Below, piece after piece: positions 101 to 38,272 of a DNA stretch of 38,272 bases. The position numbers were made by a program, and so were the translations under genes. The first letter of the stretch is position 1. The number at the start of each line of letters is the position of its first letter. The notes under the pieces were generated by a model. The model saw only the letters and a program-made list of their open reading frames with translations, was not told where the DNA came from and made no database searches. The DNA is taken from the NCBI GenBank assembly GCA_026399195.1, contig JAPLRK010000085.1:1-38272 (forward strand), written 5' to 3'. The DNA is from Legionellales bacterium (GTDB taxonomy: Bacteria > Pseudomonadota > Gammaproteobacteria > Legionellales > Legionellaceae).

Positions 101-445
101 TCATGCGGGGAAAATTACCGCGTAGCGGTTTCGTCCAATGTCAAAAGTTAAGGTGCAGCTTGCGCCTGGTTGTAGGGTCATTGATTTTGGACAGTAGCCC
201 CCTGATAGATTTTGCGTAGCGTGGGCTGTTGAATTAGCCAGTTGCAGTGAGTAATTGCGTAATGTTTTACTTGTGTTATTGGTAATTGTGAAATAAGCAC
301 TTGTTGATCCCTCGGGATTGACGGTTAGAGGGATTGGGTGCTCCGAGGATTGACTGATACTCAAATTACTTTTTGCAAAGTTCGGGTTAAGTAAAAAAAG
401 GAGTGAAAGACATAAGAGGATACGGCTCAAGGTGATGGTCTTCAT
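101..445 (-). CDS. Short secreted protein, Ig-like domain only (truncated paralogue of the propeller proteins)
   Basis: A 114-residue protein starting at MKTITLSRIL, chosen because a signal peptide follows directly (hydrophobic LLCLSLLFLLNP, then FAKS) and a GGAG lies about 12 nt upstream. The mature part (GSTSAYFTITNNTSKTLRNY, then YCPKSMTLQPGASCTLTFDI) matches the N-terminal domain of the two ~600-residue secreted proteins at 32123-33916 and 35409-37259. This domain looks like an ASH/Ig-type fold with a Cys pair. The reading frame stops right after this block, so the whole C-terminal repeat region is absent. It lies 28 nt downstream of an outer-membrane barrel gene, the same order as the pair at 35.4-38.1 kb. 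It could be a functional single-domain protein or a decayed remnant. Function is unknown. Confidence 0.6.
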   Translation of the reverse strand: MKTITLSRILLCLSLLFLLNPNFAKSNLSISQSSEHPIPLTVNPEGSTSAYFTITNNTSKTLRNYSLQLANSTAHATQNLSGGYCPKSMTLQPGASCTLTFDIGRNRYAVIFPA

Positions 446-473: not shown

Positions 474-1256
474 TTATATGACATAACTAAGCTGCGCCAC
501 AAACTGATTCGCAGTAATATTTTGGGCGCTGGGCGTGAAGGGAACAGGGGCCGAATAGTTTGCGAAAGTAACGGTTCCTGAGCCAAGGGATACTCTGTCA
601 AACCATGAAAATCGATAGCCTAGACCTAAGCGCAGGTGTTGGTTTAAATGGGTGTCTACCCCAATGCCAAGTTGGTAACTAAAAACCGTTTGATGGTGAT
701 TCAGAAACGTCGGGGTTAAATTGCGATTGCCTGTTTCTTCAGTGAAGGCCTGATATGAGTTGAGTTGATTAAATGCTGCCCCAACACCGCCTGAGATATA
801 AGGATGAAACCTATCATAAACTGTGCCAAACAGCTTTCCTACTGCGAGGACTTGTTGTGTTTGATAACGATACTGATACTGATATAGCGTATCGGTATTT
901 GGCTGAACCCCAGCGGCGTTTAGCCCTTTCTGGGTCACCGGTGAATAATAATCATACTCAACGCCAACATCTGCAAAGACCCCCGAGCGCCAAAGATCAT
1001 GCTCAACCCCAAGAAATCCACCCATAAAGCCATCTGCTCTGGGGTCTCCCTTGTTGTTATAAGTAAAGGAGTCCTCATTTTCATTTAAAAAGGATTGTGA
1101 AGTGCTTACTCTAAACCAAGAAGCCCCCCCTAAAATCGCTATCACAGGTCGAAAGGATGTTCGATCTGTCGCTATGGGCCCCATGTCCCCAGCAAAAACA
1201 GTCGTATATCCAAAAGCTCCTCCCAAAATCCCTAGAATCCAATATTTTGAGGCCAT
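474..1256 (-). CDS. Outer-membrane beta-barrel protein
   Basis: About 260 residues. The ATG at 1256 is preferred over the one at 1262 because an AAGGA sits 8 nt upstream of it and only 2 nt from the other. The signal peptide MASKYWILGILGGAFGYTTVFA is followed by GDMGPIA. The mature chain alternates polar and hydrophobic residues with many Gly, Tyr and Phe (GVEYDYYSP, YQYQYRYQTQQ, LGLGYRFSWFD) and ends in a C-terminal strand QFVAQLSYVI, as in small OmpA/OmpW-like porin barrels of the outer membrane. It is a clear paralogue of the protein at 37268-38059 (shared FRPVI/FRPVVTLTGGA, NTDTLYQYQ/NTSTLYQYN, HPYISGGVGAAF/HPYVSVGLGGAF, ANQFVAQLSY/ANQFIAQLSY). Ligand and role are unknown. A tetranucleotide repeat lies in its upstream region. 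Confidence 0.8.
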   Translation of the reverse strand: MASKYWILGILGGAFGYTTVFAGDMGPIATDRTSFRPVIAILGGASWFRVSTSQSFLNENEDSFTYNNKGDPRADGFMGGFLGVEHDLWRSGVFADVGVEYDYYSPVTQKGLNAAGVQPNTDTLYQYQYRYQTQQVLAVGKLFGTVYDRFHPYISGGVGAAFNQLNSYQAFTEETGNRNLTPTFLNHHQTVFSYQLGIGVDTHLNQHLRLGLGYRFSWFDRVSLGSGTVTFANYSAPVPFTPSAQNITANQFVAQLSYVI

Positions 1257-1295
1257 TTCCATTGTCCTTTATCGGAAAGAATTTTTTACTTTATC

Positions 1296-3974: not shown

Positions 3975-5204
3975 TCACCCAGGAGTCATCAGTTTTTTAT
4001 GTTTTGCTGACTCATGGCGCTCTAAAAGATCAATATCATTATAGCGATCTGTGATGGCACTTGAACTATGTCCTGCATCATCTCGTACGTGTGCTACGGG
4101 CCTTCCACGCTTATTGATATCGTCGGAAATTCCTGTCTGTCTTAACCAGTGGACAGCCGCTGATTCCAAGAGATCGGCTTCCGTTGTACACCCTTGATGT
4201 CTTAATTGTTGAATGGTGCTATCAAAACAATCTTGAATTAATCGACGAAGGTGTCTTGAGCTGGTCATAGGCCCTTTTCCTGTTTCTTTCGATAACAAAG
4301 GGATTTTTTCGTTGACAAAAGGAAGCGGGGATAATTGCATGCTGAGGCGATATCGCCTAAGGGCCAAAAGCATATCATCAGGCACTGCGATCTCACGCAT
4401 TTTATTGCCTTTCCCAACCGTTTTAAACCACCAACAACTGGCGCTGTCTTGATAAAAATGACCCATTTCTGGAGTCCAACGATCTGAAGCGCATAACTCT
4501 GAGACGCGTAAGTATAACAAATACAGCGCGGAAACGATGAATAAGGTGCGCTCGTGATGCTCTGGTCTTTGGTTGGCCATGATTTTTACGGTTTCAAGAC
4601 AAGATTGCCATTGCTTGTCACTCAAACGCATCACACGATCTTGATATTGATGTTTTTGAATGTACTTGCTTTTCTGTTTGATGAGAGCAATGGGATTCAT
4701 GCTGATTTTCTCACAGAGCACCAAATAATTATAAAAGCTGCTCAGCACCGTGAATATTTCACGGATGGCTTTTTGTGATAATTGATAATCATCTAGACTG
4801 GGTTTCAAACCCATTTTATGCTGAAGTTTGCTCACACTGACAACAAAAGGGCGCCACTGTGGATTGGGTGCTCTGAGCCCCAGCACCGAGACAAAACGCG
4901 CCACTCGTTTCAATCCAATCCAAGATTTGGGTGGATCAAGACAAAACTCAATATAATCCTCCATGTCTTGTCGGCTTAACGCGAGCAAAGACTTTTGCTT
5001 AATGAACCAAGTCCATTGAAGAAGCCGCTCAATCTCTCGTCGATAGGATTCAAATGTGGCATTGTTATGATCATATTGTTTTAGAAAATCCAAACAACAG
5101 ATAAGATCATTTGGCGGAGCAGAAGGAGGGGGTAATATGATCCAATGATTTTCATTGAGCTGTTGGCAGGTGTCAATCAATGGTATGGGTAAAGGTATGC
5201 TCAT
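3975..5204 (-). CDS. Tyrosine recombinase / phage-type integrase
   Basis: 409 residues. The ATG at 5204 is chosen because GGAG lies 5 nt upstream; an in-frame ATG at 5222 overlaps the stop of the preceding small ORF and is less well supported. The N-terminal half looks like a SAM-like core-binding domain (about 35-180). The C-terminal catalytic domain has the full set: Arg233 (YLRVSEL), Lys265 (GKGNKMRE), His352 and Arg355 (HWLRQTG), His379 (AGHSSS) and nucleophile Tyr388 (TDRYND). It should cut and rejoin DNA at specific sites through a 3'-phosphotyrosine. No excisionase, relaxase or phage gene is adjacent and no attachment-site duplication was seen, so its substrate is unknown. Confidence 0.9.
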   Translation of the reverse strand: MSIPLPIPLIDTCQQLNENHWIILPPPSAPPNDLICCLDFLKQYDHNNATFESYRREIERLLQWTWFIKQKSLLALSRQDMEDYIEFCLDPPKSWIGLKRVARFVSVLGLRAPNPQWRPFVVSVSKLQHKMGLKPSLDDYQLSQKAIREIFTVLSSFYNYLVLCEKISMNPIALIKQKSKYIQKHQYQDRVMRLSDKQWQSCLETVKIMANQRPEHHERTLFIVSALYLLYLRVSELCASDRWTPEMGHFYQDSASCWWFKTVGKGNKMREIAVPDDMLLALRRYRLSMQLSPLPFVNEKIPLLSKETGKGPMTSSRHLRRLIQDCFDSTIQQLRHQGCTTEADLLESAAVHWLRQTGISDDINKRGRPVAHVRDDAGHSSSAITDRYNDIDLLERHESAKHKKLMTPG

Positions 5205-5218
5205 CGTTACTCCTACCT

Positions 5219-5443
5219 TCATGGCGTAACGACAAGGGATATGGAGGTCGTATTTTTCTTACCACCCCCGCTCATACTTCCCCAGCCCGTCACTTGGCTG
5301 TTGACCACGTCAGGAACATGGCGAGTAAGCACTACTTGAGCTTGAGATGGAAGGCAAGAAACGAGAAGGGTCAAGGTCAAGCCAAGGAACCCAAACAGTC
5401 GTTTGATAACGGCATTTCTCGAATTTTTTGGAATCCATAGCAT
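5219..5443 (-). pseudogene. Small secreted ORF, probable N-terminal stump of an S53 (kumamolisin-type) protease
   Basis: 74 codons with an excellent Shine-Dalgarno (AAGGAG, 6 nt before the ATG at 5443). A signal peptide is visible: positive N-region (PKNSRNAVIKR), hydrophobic core (LFGFLGLTLTLLVSCL), cleavage near SQAQ. The mature start VVLTRHVPDVV resembles the beginning of the S53/pro-kumamolisin activation propeptide (LTxHVP followed by a Leu-rich strand such as ISLVV), after which the frame stops. An S53 enzyme would need several hundred more residues, and none follow. The stop overlaps the alternative ATG of the recombinase gene. It is either a gene truncated when the recombinase arrived, or a short exported peptide still made from strong translation signals. 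The family match is from memory of the motif only. Confidence 0.45.
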
Positions 5444-10351: not shown

Positions 10352-10836
10352 CTAGTGTCTTTTCTTGTTAATTCGTTCTCTTAAGCTGTCATCCCCGCGC
10401 AGGCGGGGATCCATCCATCAATATAATCCTATACTCAAATCAAGCCACTGAGGGTTGTGTTGTTTAATTAGATTGATTTTCCACTTCCTCCTTCAGTAAT
10501 GCTAATCGCTTTTCTACTTCCACCCAAAAATCTTCCATTTATACAAGCATCTCCTGGATGCCGCGGATAAACCGCGGCACGTCGGCGACGGGGGAGATCA
10601 AATGTCAACAGCCCTTACTCAAAAATTCCAATTTATTGTGATAAGCGCTTGGATGATGCTCTTGAAACGCTAGATAAAGCATGGGATACAATGACAGAAA
10701 ATATTCGTTTAAATCGTAATCCGGGGTTCAATCTAAAAGTATCCAAAGATGGGCAACTCGAGTGATTTGCAAGATGGATCCCCGCCTGCGCGGGGATGAC
10801 AGATTGAGAGATCGAATTAACAAGAAAAGGCACTAG
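10352..10836. mobile_element. 485-bp MITE-like element with 64-nt inverted ends
   Basis: The left end (10352-10415) and the reverse complement of the right end (10773-10836) both read CTAGTGYCTTTTCTTGTT, then AATTCG, and finish in TCATCCCCGCGCAGGCGGGG and ATCCATC; they differ at only about six of 64 positions. The inner part of each end is itself a hairpin (CCCCGCGCAGGCGGGG). Inside are a second palindrome (CCGCGGATAAACCGCGG, about 10561-10577), a 24-codon minus-strand ORF (10464-10538, MEDFWVEVEKRLALL...) and a 39-codon plus-strand frame (10646-10765, RLDDALETLDKAWDTMTENI...), neither firmly recognised. No transposase gene is present. The right end stops one base from the stop codon of the HdeD-like gene. 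Confidence 0.7.
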
Positions 10837-17911: not shown

Positions 17912-17963
17912 GGTCAATCCTCCAACTGGGGATAGGAAGTTATTTTGCTCCCGAACCCGATTT

Positions 17964-32122: not shown

Positions 32123-33916
32123 ATGCCTATAAACTGCCGACAAGCACCTGTTGCTCTATTAACGACACTGATATTGAGCTTAACTTCTGATATATCATTG
32201 GCCGGAAATTTTAGCATCGATCCAGCGCCCGGACGCCCTATCATTATCAGCGTTGGGGCTGGGAGCACAGCTTCAGTTTATTATCTTGTAAAGAATCTAA
32301 CACAGAAGACTCTGAGTGGTTATACGCTTCAAGGGGCTCCAGATACGGTGAAGCAAAATGTAACGAGTCCTTATTGTCCTAATCAGGTGACTCTTGACGC
32401 CGGAGAAAGTTGCGAATTGCGGCTTGATATTACTGGGAAAGTCAACTCAAGCTTTGCACTTTGTCTTGGTGCAAATTGTACAGCTGCGAGTGTACGGTTG
32501 AAGGTGGAGCTGAATTCGGGGGATTTCCCTTCTGCTGTTGCCGTTGGTTCTTATGTGGCTTTAAATAATCCCAATGTTTTATTGGCAGACAACAGTTCTT
32601 CCAACTGGTCCTATCCGGTCATAGCCCCCCCCCCTGATCAAGGTAATTATTACAGCACGTTCACCAGCACCAGTTGCCTTAATGGCGTTAGTGGGGCTAC
32701 CTATTGCATTGCTGCGGGCGCATATGATACCTCAACTGAGATCCAGTATCCCTTGCTTTACTTAAAATCGACCCAAGAAGGGGGATGGGAAAACATCATT
32801 AATAGTGAGACTTCCTTGCCAAATAATTTCGCCGGAAATGGAACATTTACGAGTTCTGCCTGCAGCTATGCCACAGAGCCATACTGTATTGCCGTGGGTC
32901 AATATGGTACGGGGCAGGCTCCGGAAGTACTGTATCCGTTGATTGCCCTAGTGGCATCAAATTCGTACACATACACCTTTGATGCTTCAAGACCACTTCC
33001 AAGCGGTTATCGTGCTCTAGGCATTTTTAACACAGCAAGTTGTGTTAATAATATATGCGTTGCCGCCGGCCAATATGAATCTACCCTTCAAGTCCCCCCC
33101 TATCTTCGAGTTTTGTATCCGCTGGCTGTAACTGCAAGATATGGAGGCTTGCCCCCTACCCCATGGACCTACGCAATTGATGGTTCAACAACTGCAAGAC
33201 CTTCAGACTATCTCGACCAAGGAAATTTTACATCCTCGAGTTGTAGTGAACTCAACAATAAAGCCTCTTGTGTTCTATCAGGATCTTACACATCGTCTAC
33301 TAATCCACAAGCAGGATACCCATGGATTGCTGTAAACAATGATGTGGAAGGCGCCGGTGCTTGGACTTTTACCCTCAGCAGCACAATGCCTTCCTGGCCA
33401 TACCTGAATTCTAGTAAGGCTACTTTCAACAGTGTCAGTTGTAGCGGCTTAAACTGCGTTGCGGTTGGCTCTTATACGTTAAATGGATCACTAAGTGGTT
33501 TGATGACCAACAGTGTTGATGGTGGTCAGGTCTGGACGTACATTCCTGTTATAAAACCCAGAATACCAAATGTTACTGATTTCTCATTTTCCTCAGTTAG
33601 CTGTAGTGGTTCAACCTGTCTAGCAGTTGGATCGGCGAAGGCTACCTACTCTTATGGTATTTGGTCCTACAGCTCTGATGGCGGAGTGACTTGGCAACGC
33701 ATCCAAAGCGATCAAAATCCAAGTTCTTACACTAGCGTCAATTGCTCTGGACAAAATGGTGTGATTACGGGAACACAGCCTGGCGTGAACACTCAATATC
33801 CTTACCTATTGACAAGCAACGACGGTGGACAAACGTTACAACCAACTATAGATATAGAAACTGCATATCCTCTGAATCTAAGCAATGGTTATTTCAGCAG
33901 TAATACTATCACTTAA
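32123..33916 (+). CDS. Secreted protein: Ig-like domain plus seven Cys-containing propeller-type repeats
   Basis: 597 residues from the ATG at 32123 (AAGGG 7 nt upstream; a TTG-initiated extension to 32066 is rejected). Signal peptide with hydrophobic VALLTTLILSL, cleavage near SLAGNF. Residues 28-132 form an Ig/ASH-like domain (GSTASVYYLVKNLTQKTLSG, SPYCPNQVTLDAGESCELRL). Then seven repeats of the form SC-n-C(V/I)A(V/A)G.Y occur at Cys pairs 185/195, 247/255, 307/312, 374/383, 440/445, 494/499 and a last one (541) whose second Cys is lost. Asp-box-like SxDGGxTW elements occur in the later repeats (NSVDGGQVW, SSDGGVTW, SNDGGQT). This suggests a seven-bladed beta-propeller with intrablade disulfides, in the periplasm or exported. 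Function and ligand are unknown. Paralogous to 35409-37259. Confidence 0.75.
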   Translation: MPINCRQAPVALLTTLILSLTSDISLAGNFSIDPAPGRPIIISVGAGSTASVYYLVKNLTQKTLSGYTLQGAPDTVKQNVTSPYCPNQVTLDAGESCELRLDITGKVNSSFALCLGANCTAASVRLKVELNSGDFPSAVAVGSYVALNNPNVLLADNSSSNWSYPVIAPPPDQGNYYSTFTSTSCLNGVSGATYCIAAGAYDTSTEIQYPLLYLKSTQEGGWENIINSETSLPNNFAGNGTFTSSACSYATEPYCIAVGQYGTGQAPEVLYPLIALVASNSYTYTFDASRPLPSGYRALGIFNTASCVNNICVAAGQYESTLQVPPYLRVLYPLAVTARYGGLPPTPWTYAIDGSTTARPSDYLDQGNFTSSSCSELNNKASCVLSGSYTSSTNPQAGYPWIAVNNDVEGAGAWTFTLSSTMPSWPYLNSSKATFNSVSCSGLNCVAVGSYTLNGSLSGLMTNSVDGGQVWTYIPVIKPRIPNVTDFSFSSVSCSGSTCLAVGSAKATYSYGIWSYSSDGGVTWQRIQSDQNPSSYTSVNCSGQNGVITGTQPGVNTQYPYLLTSNDGGQTLQPTIDIETAYPLNLSNGYFSSNTIT

Positions 33917-34035: not shown

Positions 34036-34117
34036 GGATTATATTGATGGATGGATCCCCGCCTGCGCGGGGATGACAACTTAGGATCGCGGCCGAAATA
34101 ACAAGAAAAGACACTAG
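34036..34117. repeat. 82-nt dispersed palindromic repeat, solo copy
   Basis: Reads GGATTATATTGATGGATGG, then ATCCCCGCCTGCGCGGGGAT, and ends AACAAGAAAAGACACTAG. The first and last thirds are identical to the reverse complement of the left end of the 485-bp element (10352-10429). The middle differs: here it carries TTAGGATCGCGGCCGAAATAAC, which is identical to the tip of the element at the window end (38092-38113). It lies in the 256-nt gap after the propeller gene, which holds no gene. Confidence 0.75.
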
Positions 34118-34172
34118 AGATCTGATAAACGATATGGCCGAATTGACGGTTTGTGAAATATAAAGGACTGGA

Positions 34173-34370: not shown

Positions 34371-35412
34371 ATCTATTTGTATCGTTCGTCTGTCAGCTCT
34401 GGGTGATGTTTTGATGTTGGTCCCTCTGATAAGAACATTGCAGGCTCATCTTACCTGCAGCATCACCTGGGTGATTTCTCGCCCGGCGTATGATTTGGTT
34501 GAAGGCCTAGAGGGCGTGGAATTTATAGTGGTGGACAAGCCCAATCGACTGGCGGATTATTGGCGCTTTAAAAAGCACATGCAAGATAGACCATTTGATA
34601 TTCTGTTAGCAACTCAGGCAAGTTTTCGTGCTAATTTGTTATACCCATTGATTAAGGCAACGCGTAAAATCGGATACGATTCGGCTCGAGCCAAAGATGG
34701 GCATGGTTGGTTTGTTCGAGAAAGGATAGCGCCAGGGTATGATCATACTTTAGAAGGGTTTTTAAAGTTCGCGGATGTCTTGGGTGTTCATCAAAAAGAG
34801 ATCAGTTGGGATGTCCCTATTCCTAAATCGGCTCATGATTGGGCGATGCGGCAAAAACCCGCCACAAAAGGACCGTGGGTTCTGATCAATCCAGCTGCAA
34901 GCAAACCTGAGCGTACTTGGTCTGCCGATCGTTATGTCCAAGTGATTCAGCACCTTCAAAAACGCTGGCAGGCTCATGTTGTTTTGGTGGGAGGTCCTGG
35001 TGCTGCCGATAGGTCGCTCGGGGATGCGATTGGTGCCGGTGTGCAAGTCACTGATTTGATAGGTCAAAGCACGCCCAAAGAGTTGTTGGCGTTGATATTG
35101 CTTGCAGATGTATTACTATCTCCAGATACAGGACCATCACACATGGCTTCGGCCGTTGGCACGCCAGTGGTGGCACTTCATGCTGTCACGAGCTCAAAAG
35201 TATCGGGTTCGTATCGATATTTAGATTTAACGGTGGATTGTTATCCTGAAGCCATGAAAAGATTGTTCAAGAAAGACAGTGCCTGGGGAACTCAGGCACA
35301 TGGGGAAGGGGTGATGGGCTTGGTGCGAGTTGAGGCGGTTGTTTCTAGGCTGGATGAGGTCTTGAAGGGGTTAGGATTCTCTAACCCCTTATCCAGAATG
35401 CACCTGATTTAA
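34363..35412 (+). CDS. Glycosyltransferase family 9 (heptosyltransferase-like)
   Basis: 349 residues. N-terminal ICIVRLSALGDVLMLVPLIR and the C-terminal nucleotide-sugar site SPDTGPSHMASAVGTPVVALHA are diagnostic of ADP-heptose:LPS heptosyltransferases (WaaC/WaaF/WaaQ). VLINPAASKPERTWSADRYVQ is the typical inter-domain segment. It probably adds heptose to the LPS core at the inner face of the inner membrane; the exact acceptor is unclear. It overlaps the zinc-finger gene and also overlaps the convergent propeller gene by 4 nt at its 3' end. Confidence 0.88.
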   Translation: MTKSICIVRLSALGDVLMLVPLIRTLQAHLTCSITWVISRPAYDLVEGLEGVEFIVVDKPNRLADYWRFKKHMQDRPFDILLATQASFRANLLYPLIKATRKIGYDSARAKDGHGWFVRERIAPGYDHTLEGFLKFADVLGVHQKEISWDVPIPKSAHDWAMRQKPATKGPWVLINPAASKPERTWSADRYVQVIQHLQKRWQAHVVLVGGPGAADRSLGDAIGAGVQVTDLIGQSTPKELLALILLADVLLSPDTGPSHMASAVGTPVVALHAVTSSKVSGSYRYLDLTVDCYPEAMKRLFKKDSAWGTQAHGEGVMGLVRVEAVVSRLDEVLKGLGFSNPLSRMHLI

Positions 35413-37259
35413 AAGGCGTTGCCAATACTAGCGCTATTCAATAGACCAGGCGTTAAATCTGTGCGACTGTTGTTGACGATCGGTGTCATTATTGAGCTAT
35501 CATAGTCGTAGGATAGCAATAACGGAGAGGTTGTGGGATCAGAAGGGGCACGCTCAAGCCCGGATATTGCGCAGCCTGCGTTACTGCAGCTCACGTCGGA
35601 GAGGGGGCTCCTTTTTACTATGGGTTGTAGTGTCCATGTTTGACCCCCATCGGTACTCAAATCTATTAAACCTAAAGTATTTTGTTGTGGATCGTATCCG
35701 GTGCCCACAGCCATACAAGTTGGCGTGATAACACCGCAACTGACACTGCTGTAGAATGAAGTGGGAATGCCGCTCGGTGGCGTCCTCATGACGTAGGTCC
35801 ATGTGTTCCCACCGTCACTGCTGTTGGCCATTAATAGTTTTTTTGAGCTAAATGATTCGCTGGTTTGATAGGAACCTACGGCGACACAATTCAATGAGGC
35901 AATTCCAGAGCAAGACACACTGTTGAAGACTCCAGAGTAGGCCTGTGCTGTTGGAAATCCTGCAGTGGAACTATCGAGGTTGTAATTCCATGTCAGACCA
36001 GCGTCCACGCTCACGGCTATTAAGGGGGCTATAAAGGGGGAGGAGCTCACTGTAGTGTACGATCCTACAGCAATACAGGTCTCGGATCCGGTACCTTGCT
36101 CATTAAGGCTGCAATTCACGTTGTTAAATCCATTTGAGTATAAATAATCCGTGGGATTTGAGGGGGTTGTACTATCCATAGTGTAGCTCCACGTCTGACC
36201 AGCGTCCGAGCTTGTTGCGGCTAGCGGCGAAAAGGTTATCCCATTTTGGGGGGGCGGGTTGTTGGCGTAATACCCTCCTGCGGCAACACAGGTGGCAGCA
36301 TTGCAACTGACAGATGCAAAGTGGCCACTATTAAAGTCTGATAGCTCCTCCGTCGTTATTGGATATTCAATCACGTATCCGTTGGTTAACCCTGCCCTTG
36401 TGGTCCGATAAGCCAGGGGGATTGTTCCGTCGACTCCTGAAGTACCTGCGGTATAGGAACCCACGGCAACGCAATATGAGTCTGGATTTCCACTCCCACT
36501 ATTCGCGCAACTAGAGCTCACAAGCATTCCCATGGAATCATATGCTGTTGGTAAAGAGGTGGCAGAAATCAGTAAGCGCCATACGTTGCCTCCGAGAGTA
36601 TCGTATAATAAGGGATACATAGAGCCGTCCCTATAGAAACCGACAGCAATGCAATAAGGGCTTCGGGTGATTGTTTGGTCGCAACTGGCGCTTAACAGTG
36701 GAGGGATCATGAGTGTAGGAGAATACGCTGGGAGAGGTGGAAAAGCAACTGTCACAACCCCCTCTAAATTACTTTCTACCATTAGGGGGCTACTATATAT
36801 TGGGACGTAGTAGACATTTATTTCGTAACCACCAACAGAAACGGCTGGTTGGAGTAACGGTGAACTCAGATCCACATCCAATGGGACGCTGGCTGTTGTG
36901 CAATTATCGCCCTTACAGAGAGCGAAGCTTGACTTAGCCCTCCCGCTGATATCAAGCCGCAATTCGCAACTTGCTCCGGCGGAAAGGATCACCGGATTGG
37001 AACAATAAGGACTTGTTCCATTATGTATCACCGTATTTGGGCTTCCTTGTAGGACATAACCGCTCAGGGTTTTCATGGTTTGATTCGTTACGGTGTAATA
37101 GGCTGAGGCTGTGCTCCCTGGCTTTACACTGATGATCCTAGGATGTCCTGGTGCTGGATCGATGGTAAAATTCCCCGCCAATGTGGTGTGGGTGGTTGTT
37201 CCCAATATCACGGCGGAAAACAAACTTAACAAGGCACTATCATTTGGTTGATGCATCAT
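35409..37259 (-). CDS. Secreted protein: Ig-like domain plus seven Cys-containing propeller-type repeats (second copy)
   Basis: 616 residues; AAGGG is 5 nt before the first of two ATGs. Signal peptide with ALLSLFSAVILGTTTHTTLA, cleavage before GNFTID. The Ig/ASH-like domain (30-132) is clearly homologous to that of 32123-33916 (DPAPGHPRIISVKPGSTASA, SPYCSNPVILSAGASCELRL). Seven SC-n-C(V/I/M)A(V)G repeats lie at Cys pairs 193/203, 251/263, 319/324, 383/395, 450/458, 508/515 and 558/563. Asp boxes SSDAGQTW (350), SVDAGLTW (417), SSDGGNTW (480) and STDGGQTW (535) suggest a beta-propeller. It starts 8 nt after the barrel gene 37268-38059, so barrel and propeller are made from one transcript. Function is unknown. 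Confidence 0.75.
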   Translation of the reverse strand: MMHQPNDSALLSLFSAVILGTTTHTTLAGNFTIDPAPGHPRIISVKPGSTASAYYTVTNQTMKTLSGYVLQGSPNTVIHNGTSPYCSNPVILSAGASCELRLDISGRAKSSFALCKGDNCTTASVPLDVDLSSPLLQPAVSVGGYEINVYYVPIYSSPLMVESNLEGVVTVAFPPLPAYSPTLMIPPLLSASCDQTITRSPYCIAVGFYRDGSMYPLLYDTLGGNVWRLLISATSLPTAYDSMGMLVSSSCANSGSGNPDSYCVAVGSYTAGTSGVDGTIPLAYRTTRAGLTNGYVIEYPITTEELSDFNSGHFASVSCNAATCVAAGGYYANNPPPQNGITFSPLAATSSDAGQTWSYTMDSTTPSNPTDYLYSNGFNNVNCSLNEQGTGSETCIAVGSYTTVSSSPFIAPLIAVSVDAGLTWNYNLDSSTAGFPTAQAYSGVFNSVSCSGIASLNCVAVGSYQTSESFSSKKLLMANSSDGGNTWTYVMRTPPSGIPTSFYSSVSCGVITPTCMAVGTGYDPQQNTLGLIDLSTDGGQTWTLQPIVKRSPLSDVSCSNAGCAISGLERAPSDPTTSPLLLSYDYDSSIMTPIVNNSRTDLTPGLLNSASIGNAF

Positions 37260-37267
37260 ATTTTCCC

Positions 37268-38059
37268 TTATGCTAAATAGCTGAGTTGAGCAATGAATTG
37301 GTTTGCGTAGAGAGGGGACGTGTTTAGTCCAAAAGGCACTGGGAAGGCATATTGATTTAGTTCAATTTGGCCCTTGCCAAGAGAGGCTTCTCCAAACCCT
37401 GAAAATCGATACCCAAAACCAAGTCGTACGCGTTCACTGATGTTCGTATCCAGACCTAAACCCACGCTGTAACTAAATGCAGACTGAGATCTGTTTTCAT
37501 AGTTAGGCGTTAAATTAAGACTTCCTGTTTCCGTGGATGATGTGGCAAAGGAGCTCGCTTGATGAAAGGCGCCCCCCAAGCCCACAGAGACATAGGGGTG
37601 GAAAACGTCATGCATTGTGGTTAATAGTTTGGCTACAACGAGCGCTTGTTGGGTTTGGATGTGGTAGTTGTATTGATAAAGGGTAGAGGTGTTTGGCTCG
37701 ATGCCGACAGAGTTCAGACCACCCACATTCGCCCCTCCAAAGTAGGTGTATTCAAGCCCTGCTTGTACGAGGAAATTCGGATTTTGGAGGGGGTGCTCGA
37801 TGCCTAGAAACGCACCGACAAGTCCCGTGGTATGATTGGAGTTATTACGGTGATAAGCAAATAATTCTCCGTCTGTCCCAGAGAAGGTTTGAGATTGCGT
37901 GGTATTGATCCATGCGGCCCCACCCGTTAAGGTCACCACAGGCCGAAAGCGAGCTGGGGGGGTGAGTGGTCCAAGCTCACCCGCTGTCGCCAGTGGGGCG
38001 CTCAATAAGCATCCTATCAAACTACAAGCCAAATACGGTCTTTTTTCTGTATTTTTCAT
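37268..38059 (-). CDS. Outer-membrane beta-barrel protein (second copy)
   Basis: 263 residues. AAGGAAGACC precedes the ATG. Signal peptide PYLACSLIGCLLSAPLATA is followed by GELGPL. The mature part has Gly/aromatic-rich amphipathic strands (GLEYTYFGG, YQYNYHIQTQQALVVAKLL, LGFGYRFSGFG) and a C-terminal barrel strand (NQFIAQLSYLA). Paralogous over its full length to the barrel at 474-1256, including the order barrel then secreted Ig-like protein downstream. Probable small porin or adhesin-type barrel in the outer membrane; ligand unknown. It does not have the tetranucleotide repeat seen upstream of the other copy. Confidence 0.8.
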   Translation of the reverse strand: MKNTEKRPYLACSLIGCLLSAPLATAGELGPLTPPARFRPVVTLTGGAAWINTTQSQTFSGTDGELFAYHRNNSNHTTGLVGAFLGIEHPLQNPNFLVQAGLEYTYFGGANVGGLNSVGIEPNTSTLYQYNYHIQTQQALVVAKLLTTMHDVFHPYVSVGLGGAFHQASSFATSSTETGSLNLTPNYENRSQSAFSYSVGLGLDTNISERVRLGFGYRFSGFGEASLGKGQIELNQYAFPVPFGLNTSPLYANQFIAQLSYLA

Positions 38060-38094: not shown

Positions 38095-38272
38095 GGATCG
38101 CGGCCGAAATAACTTCCTATTCTTGCATCAAACCGAACATCATCTTGACGCGTTCGGATCCATTAAAAAGCTCGGTGGACAACAAGTACACCTGCGTTTT
38201 TTAATGGATCCGAACGCGTCAAGCTAATGTCCAGCTTCGCGCAAGAATAGGAAGTTATTTCGGCCGCGATCC
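38095..38272. mobile_element. 178-bp nested palindromic element at the window end
   Basis: Outer perfect 32-nt inverted repeats (38095-38126 and 38241-38272, tip GGATCGCGGCCGAAATAAC) enclose an inner perfect 26-nt inverted repeat (38144-38169 and 38198-38223, GACGCGTTCGGATCCATT inside). The sequence between the inner arms is 28 nt. No ORF is present. The tip is shared with the repeat at 34036-34117. It lies 35 nt upstream of the barrel gene start, on the promoter side, and ends exactly at the last base of the window. Confidence 0.75.

What the first reader, a model, noticed from the sequence alone, without database searches (positions are those of the whole stretch)
35409..38059. Two-gene unit: outer-membrane barrel plus secreted Ig-like/propeller protein, present at both ends of the window
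The order barrel then secreted protein occurs at 37268-38059/35409-37259 (8-nt gap) and at 474-1256/101-445 (28-nt gap), with clear paralogy in both members. Conserved pairing with such tight spacing suggests the two proteins work together, for example a barrel that displays, anchors or exports a propeller. I do not know a described system with this composition; novelty is inference.
Basis: partly seen in the sequence, partly recalled or inferred. Interest (0 to 1): 0.65.

Follow-up and report, generated by a model that had tools for sequence, protein, structure and literature searches.

The report
Barrel paired with swappable surface proteins
In Legionella-family bacteria a small outer-membrane barrel gene is often followed by a gene for a secreted protein that keeps the same front domain but carries very different rear parts, which looks like a plug-in system for decorating the cell surface.

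Summary
Each barrel (Pfam OMP_b-brl; model read as 8-stranded) is followed after 8 or 28 nt by a secreted protein. In 20 family genomes, 48 of 124 copies of that protein's ~110-residue N-terminal domain have a barrel directly upstream on the same strand (about 0.05 expected). The constant element is this four-cysteine, Ig-like-looking domain, not the propeller: rear parts include propellers, Lcl_C heads, TIG repeats, lectin and CD39/apyrase domains. Within genomes, N-domain similarity tracks the adjacent barrel (rho 0.88, p 0.0005), not its own passenger (0.21, p 0.14). One genome has two copies identical through barrel and N-domain with different passengers. Best explanation (inferred): the N-domain docks the exported protein on its barrel, giving interchangeable surface display. 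Against: pairing is not obligate (69 of 124 N-domains lack a barrel within 3.5 kb), co-duplication could mimic co-variation, and contact was not tested; the window's left pair is a stub and a third paralogue is unpaired. Closest analogue: Salmonella ZirTS. Open-licence literature searches found no description.

The parts
37268..38059 (-). barrel of the complete pair: hydrophobic leader plus outer-membrane beta-barrel (263 aa)
   Evidence: PF13505 35.6 bits, above cut-off; AlphaFold2 pLDDT 82.4, read as eight long strands; Foldseek list includes OmpA, Ail, OmpX, NspA, OmpW and also the larger OmpT/Pla and FadL barrels
37260..37267 (-). 8-nt intergenic gap; the sequence reads TAA GGGAAAAT ATG, so a purine-rich ribosome-site-like run abuts the barrel's stop codon (translational coupling likely, inference)
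   Evidence: sequence
35409..37259 (-). secreted partner (616 aa): leader, N-domain, Asp-box/BNR-type propeller passenger
36849..37175 (-). N-domain (about 110 aa, all-beta in the model, four near-invariant cysteines), the constant module of the secreted family
   Evidence: A2/A7 profiles; no Pfam family above chance
35412..36866 (-). passenger: probable Asp-box/BNR-type beta-propeller
   Evidence: BNR E 4.4e-6, 26.3 bits, just below the 27-bit cut-off; Foldseek propellers
474..1262 (-). second barrel (262 aa; start could be 1256)
   Evidence: PF13505 32.2 bits; 43% identical to the first
101..445 (-). truncated secreted partner of the second barrel (114 aa): leader and most of an N-domain, no passenger
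   Evidence: profile positions 2-79 of 114; stop codon, then contig end
32066..33916 (+). unpaired full-length paralogue (N-domain at 32201-32521, 70% identical to that of 35409-37259, plus propeller-like rear part)

Best explanation
A two-gene surface-display module. Gene 1 makes a small outer-membrane barrel (read as eight-stranded). Gene 2 makes an exported, apparently non-lipidated protein whose ~110-residue N-terminal domain is the address tag and whose rear part is an interchangeable functional head. [quoted passage not shown] a secretin gene is present in the genome). Its N-domain then docks on the extracellular face of its cognate barrel, holding the head at the cell surface. New heads are acquired by recombination just behind the N-domain. 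SHOWN by computation: recurrent pairing and order, constant N-domain with variable rear part, barrel/N-domain co-variation within genomes, one clean head swap, no lipobox motif, a T2SS secretin gene in the genome. INFERRED: physical contact, docking on the outer face, the export route, the function of the heads (adhesion, glycan binding, nucleotide hydrolysis).
For: 48 of 124 N-domains in 20 genomes have a barrel directly upstream on the same strand within 400 nt (tables; genomes chosen among those with a match). 47 of 82 barrels in 80 named loci are followed by an N-domain gene. 70 of 78 pairs have gaps of -41 to +37 nt. Within 5 genomes (23 pairs, 50 comparisons, pooled): barrel vs N-domain similarity rho 0.88, p 0.0005; N-domain vs its own passenger 0.21, p 0.14; barrel vs passenger 0.17, p 0.17. 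Two copies in G140 are identical over the 1560 bp compared, including the whole barrel and the first 131 aa of the partner, then unrelated. Passengers at E <= 0.001: Lcl_C in 37 of 104, TIG 14, BNR 11, Lactonase 8, others; GDA1_CD39 over its cut-off. 0 of 81 N-domain proteins have a lipobox motif. N-domain present in 129 of 143 family genomes, never without a barrel-family gene. GspD over cut-off in 128 of 143 genomes including this one. Barrel loops read as extracellular carry more information than periplasmic turns (1.87 vs 1.23 bits). Three of three barrels with a long N-terminal extension carry a SPOR domain there, which fits N-terminus inside, loops outside.
Against: No direct evidence of contact. 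The co-variation could follow from co-duplication of a linked block without binding. 69 of 124 N-domains have no barrel within 3.5 kb, and 61 of 115 barrels are not the nearest barrel of any N-domain within 3.5 kb. Barrels outside the 71 used pairs show equal or higher loop conservation (2.14 bits), so the loops may be conserved for another reason. G017 and one G219 locus have the reverse gene order. The T2SS route is unproven: GspD is nearly universal, and two incomplete genomes without any GspD match (G012, G045) still carry N-domains. Signal peptides were judged by eye; an AxA motif near the N-domain start was found in only 36 of 81.
Confidence: 0.55

Rival explanations
1. Co-inherited cassette without physical interaction: barrel and secreted protein are two independent surface or secreted proteins that share a promoter and spread together; the N-domain is only a leader-proximal or folding domain.
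For: Many unpaired members on both sides. Dispersed copies with identical scores within genomes (G142: three barrels and three N-domains; G071: five barrels), the two copies in G140 and a pair on a conjugative plasmid suggest that the block moves and duplicates as a unit, which by itself gives matched barrel and N-domain histories.
Against: Linkage alone does not readily explain why the N-domain tracks a protein in another gene better than the rest of its own protein, pooled over five genomes, nor why N-domains are absent from all four barrel-less genomes (two of these are 0.5-Mb genomes and one is 75% complete).
Confidence: 0.25
2. Two-partner secretion in the manner of ZirTS or FhaC/FHA: the barrel is the translocator that carries the secreted protein across the outer membrane.
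For: Barrel first, secreted gene directly after, as in zirT/zirS, where ZirS secretion depends on the neighbouring barrel ZirT (PMC2270342, abstract and passages). A conserved N-terminal domain is where two-partner substrates carry their recognition signal.
Against: The barrel model reads as eight-stranded; the Foldseek list includes OmpA, OmpX, Ail and NspA, which are not known as protein channels (recalled), though it also includes larger barrels. No intimin-type, POTRA or Omp85 family was found. Many N-domain proteins have no barrel near them.
Confidence: 0.12
3. The N-domain binds the periplasmic side of the barrel and keeps the protein in the periplasm or at the inner leaflet, as part of envelope maintenance.
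For: Some barrels carry an N-terminal SPOR domain, expected in the periplasm. Paired cysteines fit the periplasm as well as the outside.
Against: Passenger families (Lcl_C head, lectin, CD39) make sense outside the cell. Periplasmic turns are the least conserved part of the barrel apart from the leader region.
Confidence: 0.05

Closest known systems
ZirTS of Salmonella enterica (PMC2270342; abstract and passages seen)
   Same: Outer-membrane barrel gene directly followed (26 bp) by a gene for a Sec-exported exoprotein that depends on it
   Different: ZirT is a 660-aa intimin/invasin-type barrel protein; here the barrel is ~260 aa, OMP_b-brl family. ZirS had no bacterial homologues outside Salmonella in that 2008 paper, whereas this is a multi-copy family with interchangeable rear parts
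Two-partner secretion (TpsB/TpsA, FhaC/FHA)
   Same: Adjacent barrel and exoprotein genes; conserved N-terminal domain of the exoprotein; variable remainder (family features partly recalled)
   Different: No POTRA/Omp85 family in the barrel, no haemagglutination-type domain in the N-domains scanned
Lcl, the Legionella collagen-like adhesin (PMC11162425; passages seen)
   Same: 37 of 104 passengers match Lcl_C (PF07603/DUF1566) at E <= 0.001 (the two whose bits I saw are below the 34.9-bit cut-off); this domain lies in Lcl's glycosaminoglycan-binding C-terminal region, and Lcl is listed as a T2SS substrate found on the surface (PMC6617341, passages)
   Different: Lcl's front part is an N-terminal helix plus collagen-like repeats, not this N-domain; no partner barrel is described in the passages I read
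VesB-type serine protease of Vibrio (4lk4)
   Same: Best solved-structure match of the N-domain profile (E 0.0096 with A2, 0.26 with the broader A7); recalled as a T2SS substrate with an Ig-fold domain
   Different: Similarity is at chance level with the better profile; domain order and partner differ
OmpA/OmpX/Ail/NspA/Opa-type small barrels
   Same: Pfam family and fold class of the barrel
   Different: Those are not encoded in a conserved pair with a secreted partner (recalled)

Membership tests
OMP_b-brl small outer-membrane barrels (PF13505) | Match over Pfam's gathering score | tested here: met
   35.6 and 32.2 bits against 28.7 for the two window barrels
OMP_b-brl small outer-membrane barrels (PF13505) | Eight-stranded barrel behind a signal peptide | tested here: met
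   AlphaFold2 model, pLDDT 82.4, eight long strands by my reading of the strand list, after an N-terminal hydrophobic helix; Foldseek matches mix 8-stranded and larger barrels
ZirTS-type secretion pathway | Intimin/invasin-type translocator barrel | tested here: not met
   No inverse-autotransporter family among Pfam hits to E 0.1 for the two window barrels
ZirTS-type secretion pathway | Secretion of the partner depends on the barrel | not testable with these tools
   needs an experiment; see referred step
Two-partner secretion (type Vb) | Omp85/POTRA-type TpsB barrel | tested here: not met
   Barrel is 263 aa; no POTRA or ShlB family
Two-partner secretion (type Vb) | TPS domain at the N-terminus of the exoprotein | tested here: not met
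   19 N-domains scanned against Pfam: nine families, each in one member at E 0.0025 or weaker, none of this kind
Autotransporters (type Va) | Passenger and 12-strand barrel in one protein | tested here: not met
   Separate genes; PF03797 18.2 bits, below the 26-bit cut-off; the one ORF with both profiles (L195) is a degraded copy
Surface lipoproteins | Lipobox cysteine at the end of the signal peptide | tested here: not met
   0 of 81 N-domain proteins by a simple motif search, no signal-peptide program
T2SS substrates | Sec signal peptide and a T2SS in the genome | tested here: inconclusive
   N-domain starts near residue 30 behind a leader in most of 114 ORFs, but no signal-peptide predictor was run and AxA was seen in 36 of 81; GspD over cut-off in this genome
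T2SS substrates | Loss of secretion in a T2SS mutant | not testable with these tools
   no proteomic data for these proteins were found in the passages read
Sialidases (GH33) | Asp-box propeller with catalytic residues | tested here: inconclusive
   Propeller fold suggested; catalytic residues not examined; BNR below cut-off for the window protein

The most novel reading that the evidence does not exclude
A lineage-specific, recombining surface-display system: a polymorphic family of exported proteins shares one docking N-domain, each docking on a cognate small barrel encoded just upstream, and heads (adhesin, lectin, propeller, apyrase) are exchanged behind the N-domain, so that Legionellaceae diversify what they show to amoebal hosts with one anchoring principle.
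Probability: 0.4. Interest if true: 0.8.

Novelty: new variant of a known kind. Interest (0 to 1): 0.62.

Why it matters
If right, it is a previously unnamed way for Gram-negative bacteria to hold apparently non-lipidated exported proteins on the surface, with a portable ~110-residue tag and a small barrel as anchor. It would place genes now annotated 'porin family', 'sialidase family' or 'hypothetical' in one system, suggest how Lcl-type heads could be kept on the surface, and give specific, computable predictions (cognate docking, head swapping).

Tried and rejected
Barrel-to-N-domain fusion in L195 (both profiles in one ORF): rejected. Reading the region in all frames shows a degraded barrel copy lacking its start, with stop codons and a frame change near its end.

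Membership in ZirTS, TPS, autotransporter or surface-lipoprotein families: rejected on tested features.

VesB similarity of the N-domain: E 0.0096 with A2 fell to 0.26 with the broader A7, so it is only a lead.

Sequence relation of the barrel to solved structures, including the Legionella porins that Foldseek listed: none at E 0.1.

NCBIfam gave nothing over a cut-off for nine proteins; the nearest for the barrel were Rick_Adr and T9SS_PorG, far below theirs.

T2SS presence as a discriminator: too universal (128 of 143 over cut-off).

Phage and plasmid origin: no PHROG match for four proteins. Plasmid searches gave only Legionella records (2 of 72,556 for the barrel, 4 for one N-domain), but one complete pair sits on a conjugative plasmid.

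Spread beyond the class: 398 genomes of the phylum gave, apart from this genome, only five partial matches at E 6e-5 to 1e-3; treated as chance or very remote.

Literature: eight searches (open-licence PMC papers only; I saw the listings of 4 to 15 top rows each, and passages of four papers) turned up no description of the pair. Subscription papers and preprints are not covered.

Rows dropped or limited: one search merged split matches (126 to 124 N-domains, 120 to 115 barrels), and the 20 genomes were chosen by few contigs among genomes with a match. Searches list only part of their matches. One search kept 80 of 113 relatives; some of its loci end at contig ends and count as unpaired. One search dropped pairs with passenger <150 aa, barrel <180, N-domain <85 and duplicates (78 to 71); the comparison set is every other barrel, so it may contain a few of the dropped pairs. 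One search dropped passengers <150, barrels <150, N-domains <80 and identical pairs, and used only the five genomes with three or more pairs (23 of 45 pairs). One search dropped passengers under 120 aa and repeats (114 to 104). The alignment used 105 of the 110 non-redundant N-domains listed.
Full report
Setting. The window is the whole of contig C73 of an unnamed 2.26-Mb genome. Its family is Legionellaceae by inference: the barrel alignment brings in Legionella worsleiensis, jamestowniensis, longbeachae, Fluoribacter gormanii and many other Legionellaceae by name. The family set also contains two 0.5-Mb genomes, which I take to be Ca. Legionella polyplacis-like (recalled, not tested); these have neither gene.

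Observation. Both pairs lie at the stated places with gaps of 8 and 28 nt. The barrels pass the Pfam OMP_b-brl cut-off. In the complete pair the barrel's stop codon is followed by GGGAAAAT and the next ATG, which suggests translational coupling. The left secreted gene is a stub: it reaches profile position 79 of 114 of the N-domain and stops.

The unit recurs. A single-sequence search of 37 genomes (this one and 36 relatives) already showed adjacency in several, and reading the loci showed barrel then secreted gene repeatedly, including two tandem pairs in this genome. I built profiles of the barrel (A1) and of the N-terminal domain of the secreted proteins (A2) and searched 143 family genomes, this one included: N-domain in 129, barrel in 139. 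The four barrel-less genomes are all N-domain-less (Fisher p 6e-5; 0.007 without the two 0.5-Mb genomes). A census in 20 genomes (this one plus 19 of one or two contigs, chosen among those with a match) gave 124 N-domains and 115 barrels. 48 N-domains have a barrel directly upstream on the same strand within 400 nt; uniform placement would give about 0.05. 55 of 124 have any barrel within 3.5 kb; 69 do not. 54 of 115 barrels are the nearest barrel of an N-domain within 3.5 kb. In this genome that holds for 9 of 12 N-domains and 9 of 13 barrels. In 80 named loci fetched by the barrel (80 of 113 relatives kept), 47 of 82 barrels are followed by an N-domain gene. Over the window and loci L059-L198, chosen partly because they hold hits, 78 pairs were found; 70 have gaps between -41 and +37 nt (negative values may reflect start choice).

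Exceptions. The order is reversed in G017 and in one G219 locus. G060 has a run of four N-domain genes, three with rear parts that look Lcl-like by eye, beside what looks like a transposase remnant. Several high-scoring barrels (e.g. G075 3094159, G134 2815886) have no N-domain partner. Outside the family, among 369 genomes of the class, three genomes of other families have the N-domain; two of them carry a pair in the usual order (G200, G219), and the third (G171) does not at the locus read. In 398 genomes of the phylum only weak partial matches appeared besides this genome. One pair lies on the conjugative plasmid pLLO-F1157CHC of L. longbeachae, annotated 'porin family protein' and 'sialidase family protein', 10 nt apart; another on an L. 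adelaidensis plasmid, annotated 'outer membrane beta-barrel protein' and 'phospholipase', the latter with an N-domain match at 1.5e-22. Two further plasmid N-domain genes have no barrel in the stretch read.

What the secreted proteins are. The N-domain starts near residue 30 in most of 114 ORFs, directly behind the leader. It has four near-invariant cysteines (A7, 105 sequences), no Pfam family above chance in 19 members, and only a chance-level solved relative. 'Ig-like' therefore rests on its all-beta prediction at low confidence. Behind it, 104 distinct passengers match 52 overlapping Pfam families at E <= 0.001: Lcl_C in 37, TIG 14, BNR 11, Lactonase 8, Sortilin-Vps10 7, legume-type lectin 2, RCC1 1 and others. 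Not all of these reach Pfam's cut-off: the two Lcl_C scores I saw were 33.5 and 30.5 against 34.9. GDA1_CD39 is clear in one protein of this genome (56.8 against 24.9). A thaumatin-domain protein of this genome also follows a barrel after 28 nt, but its front domain does not match A2 (ASH-like, 19.4 bits against 27), so it is a possible divergent member and is counted as unpaired. Thaumatin and apyrase domains in Legionella were reported before as eukaryotic-like (PMC4256840, passages). The Lcl C-terminal region is the glycosaminoglycan-binding head of a surface-held T2SS substrate (PMC11162425, passages; PMC6617341, passages). None of the passages I read mentions a barrel partner.

The barrel and the N-domain belong together. 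Across 71 non-redundant pairs, barrel similarity correlates with N-domain similarity (rho 0.72) more than N-domain with its own passenger (0.36) or barrel with passenger (0.40) (all three exceed every shuffle of 500). To remove species relatedness I compared pairs within genomes only (5 genomes, 23 pairs, 50 comparisons, labels shuffled within genomes): barrel/N-domain rho 0.88, p 0.0005; N-domain/passenger 0.21, p 0.14; barrel/passenger 0.17, p 0.17. In G140 two copies about 6 kb apart are identical over the 1560 bp compared, from 314 nt upstream through the barrel and the first 131 aa of the partner, and then unrelated: a head swap just behind the N-domain. The same pattern would follow if the block merely duplicates as a unit, so this supports but does not prove contact.

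Structure. The barrel model (65-row alignment, pLDDT 82.4) reads as eight long strands. Foldseek lists OmpA, Ail, OmpX, NspA and OmpW, but also larger barrels (OmpT/Pla, OpcA, FadL) and two entries titled as porins of the Legionella Dot/Icm machine; no sequence relation to any solved chain exists at E 0.1. With both termini inside (consistent with SPOR domains on the N-terminus of three relatives), the four long loops face outwards. Their information content (1.87 bits) lies between strands (2.40) and periplasmic turns (1.23). The barrels outside the used pairs show the same order with slightly higher values (2.14, 2.47, 1.49), so loop conservation does not single out paired barrels. The secreted model is of modest confidence (pLDDT 65); its best matches are propellers, mostly of the sialidase Asp-box type, with low TM-scores.

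Mechanism. I favour docking and display: Sec export, then T2SS (GspD present), then capture of the N-domain by the cognate barrel at the surface. Export through the barrel is unlikely for an 8-stranded barrel (recalled). Co-inheritance without contact remains the main rival.

Novelty. The closest analogue is ZirTS (26 bp apart, barrel-dependent exoprotein; PMC2270342, abstract and passages), but its barrel is intimin-type and its exoprotein was not described as a modular family. Searches of open-licence papers found no description of this pair in the rows listed. I rate it a new variant of a known kind (two-partner surface/secretion modules).

Noticed in passing
window 38095-38272: 75-nt inverted repeat (89% complementary, 28-nt loop) at the very end of the contig; part of it recurs at 34081-34102 and near 17932. 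Probably a dispersed repeat at which the assembly broke, or an end artefact.
   Followed up: no
window 10352-10836 and 34036-34123: Dispersed short repeat copies (identical 29-nt core at 10773-10801 and 34050-34078, inverted at 10379-10429), the second lying between the unpaired secreted gene and the heptosyltransferase gene.
   Followed up: no
L188:4506-5666, L167:4533-5681, L067:5402-6517: Some barrels carry an N-terminal SPOR (peptidoglycan-binding) domain: over Pfam's cut-off in 3 of 3 scanned, all chosen for a long N-terminal extension.
   Followed up: partly
L113 (G060 C34:21000-35000): Run of four N-domain genes with similar front domains, with a transposase-like ORF (by eye) among them; G060 has 27 N-domain matches but 11 barrel matches.
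   Followed up: partly
L071:2684-4546: CD39/apyrase domain behind the N-domain and a barrel; Legionella apyrases are listed in PMC4256840 (passage).
   Followed up: no
L074:4026-7224: Barrel followed after 28 nt by a 783-aa thaumatin-domain protein whose front domain is ASH-like and does not match the N-domain profile.
   Followed up: partly
window 3975-5222: Integrase-like gene with a match to Phage_integrase just below the cut-off (22.9 against 27.1 bits), near the left pair.
   Followed up: no
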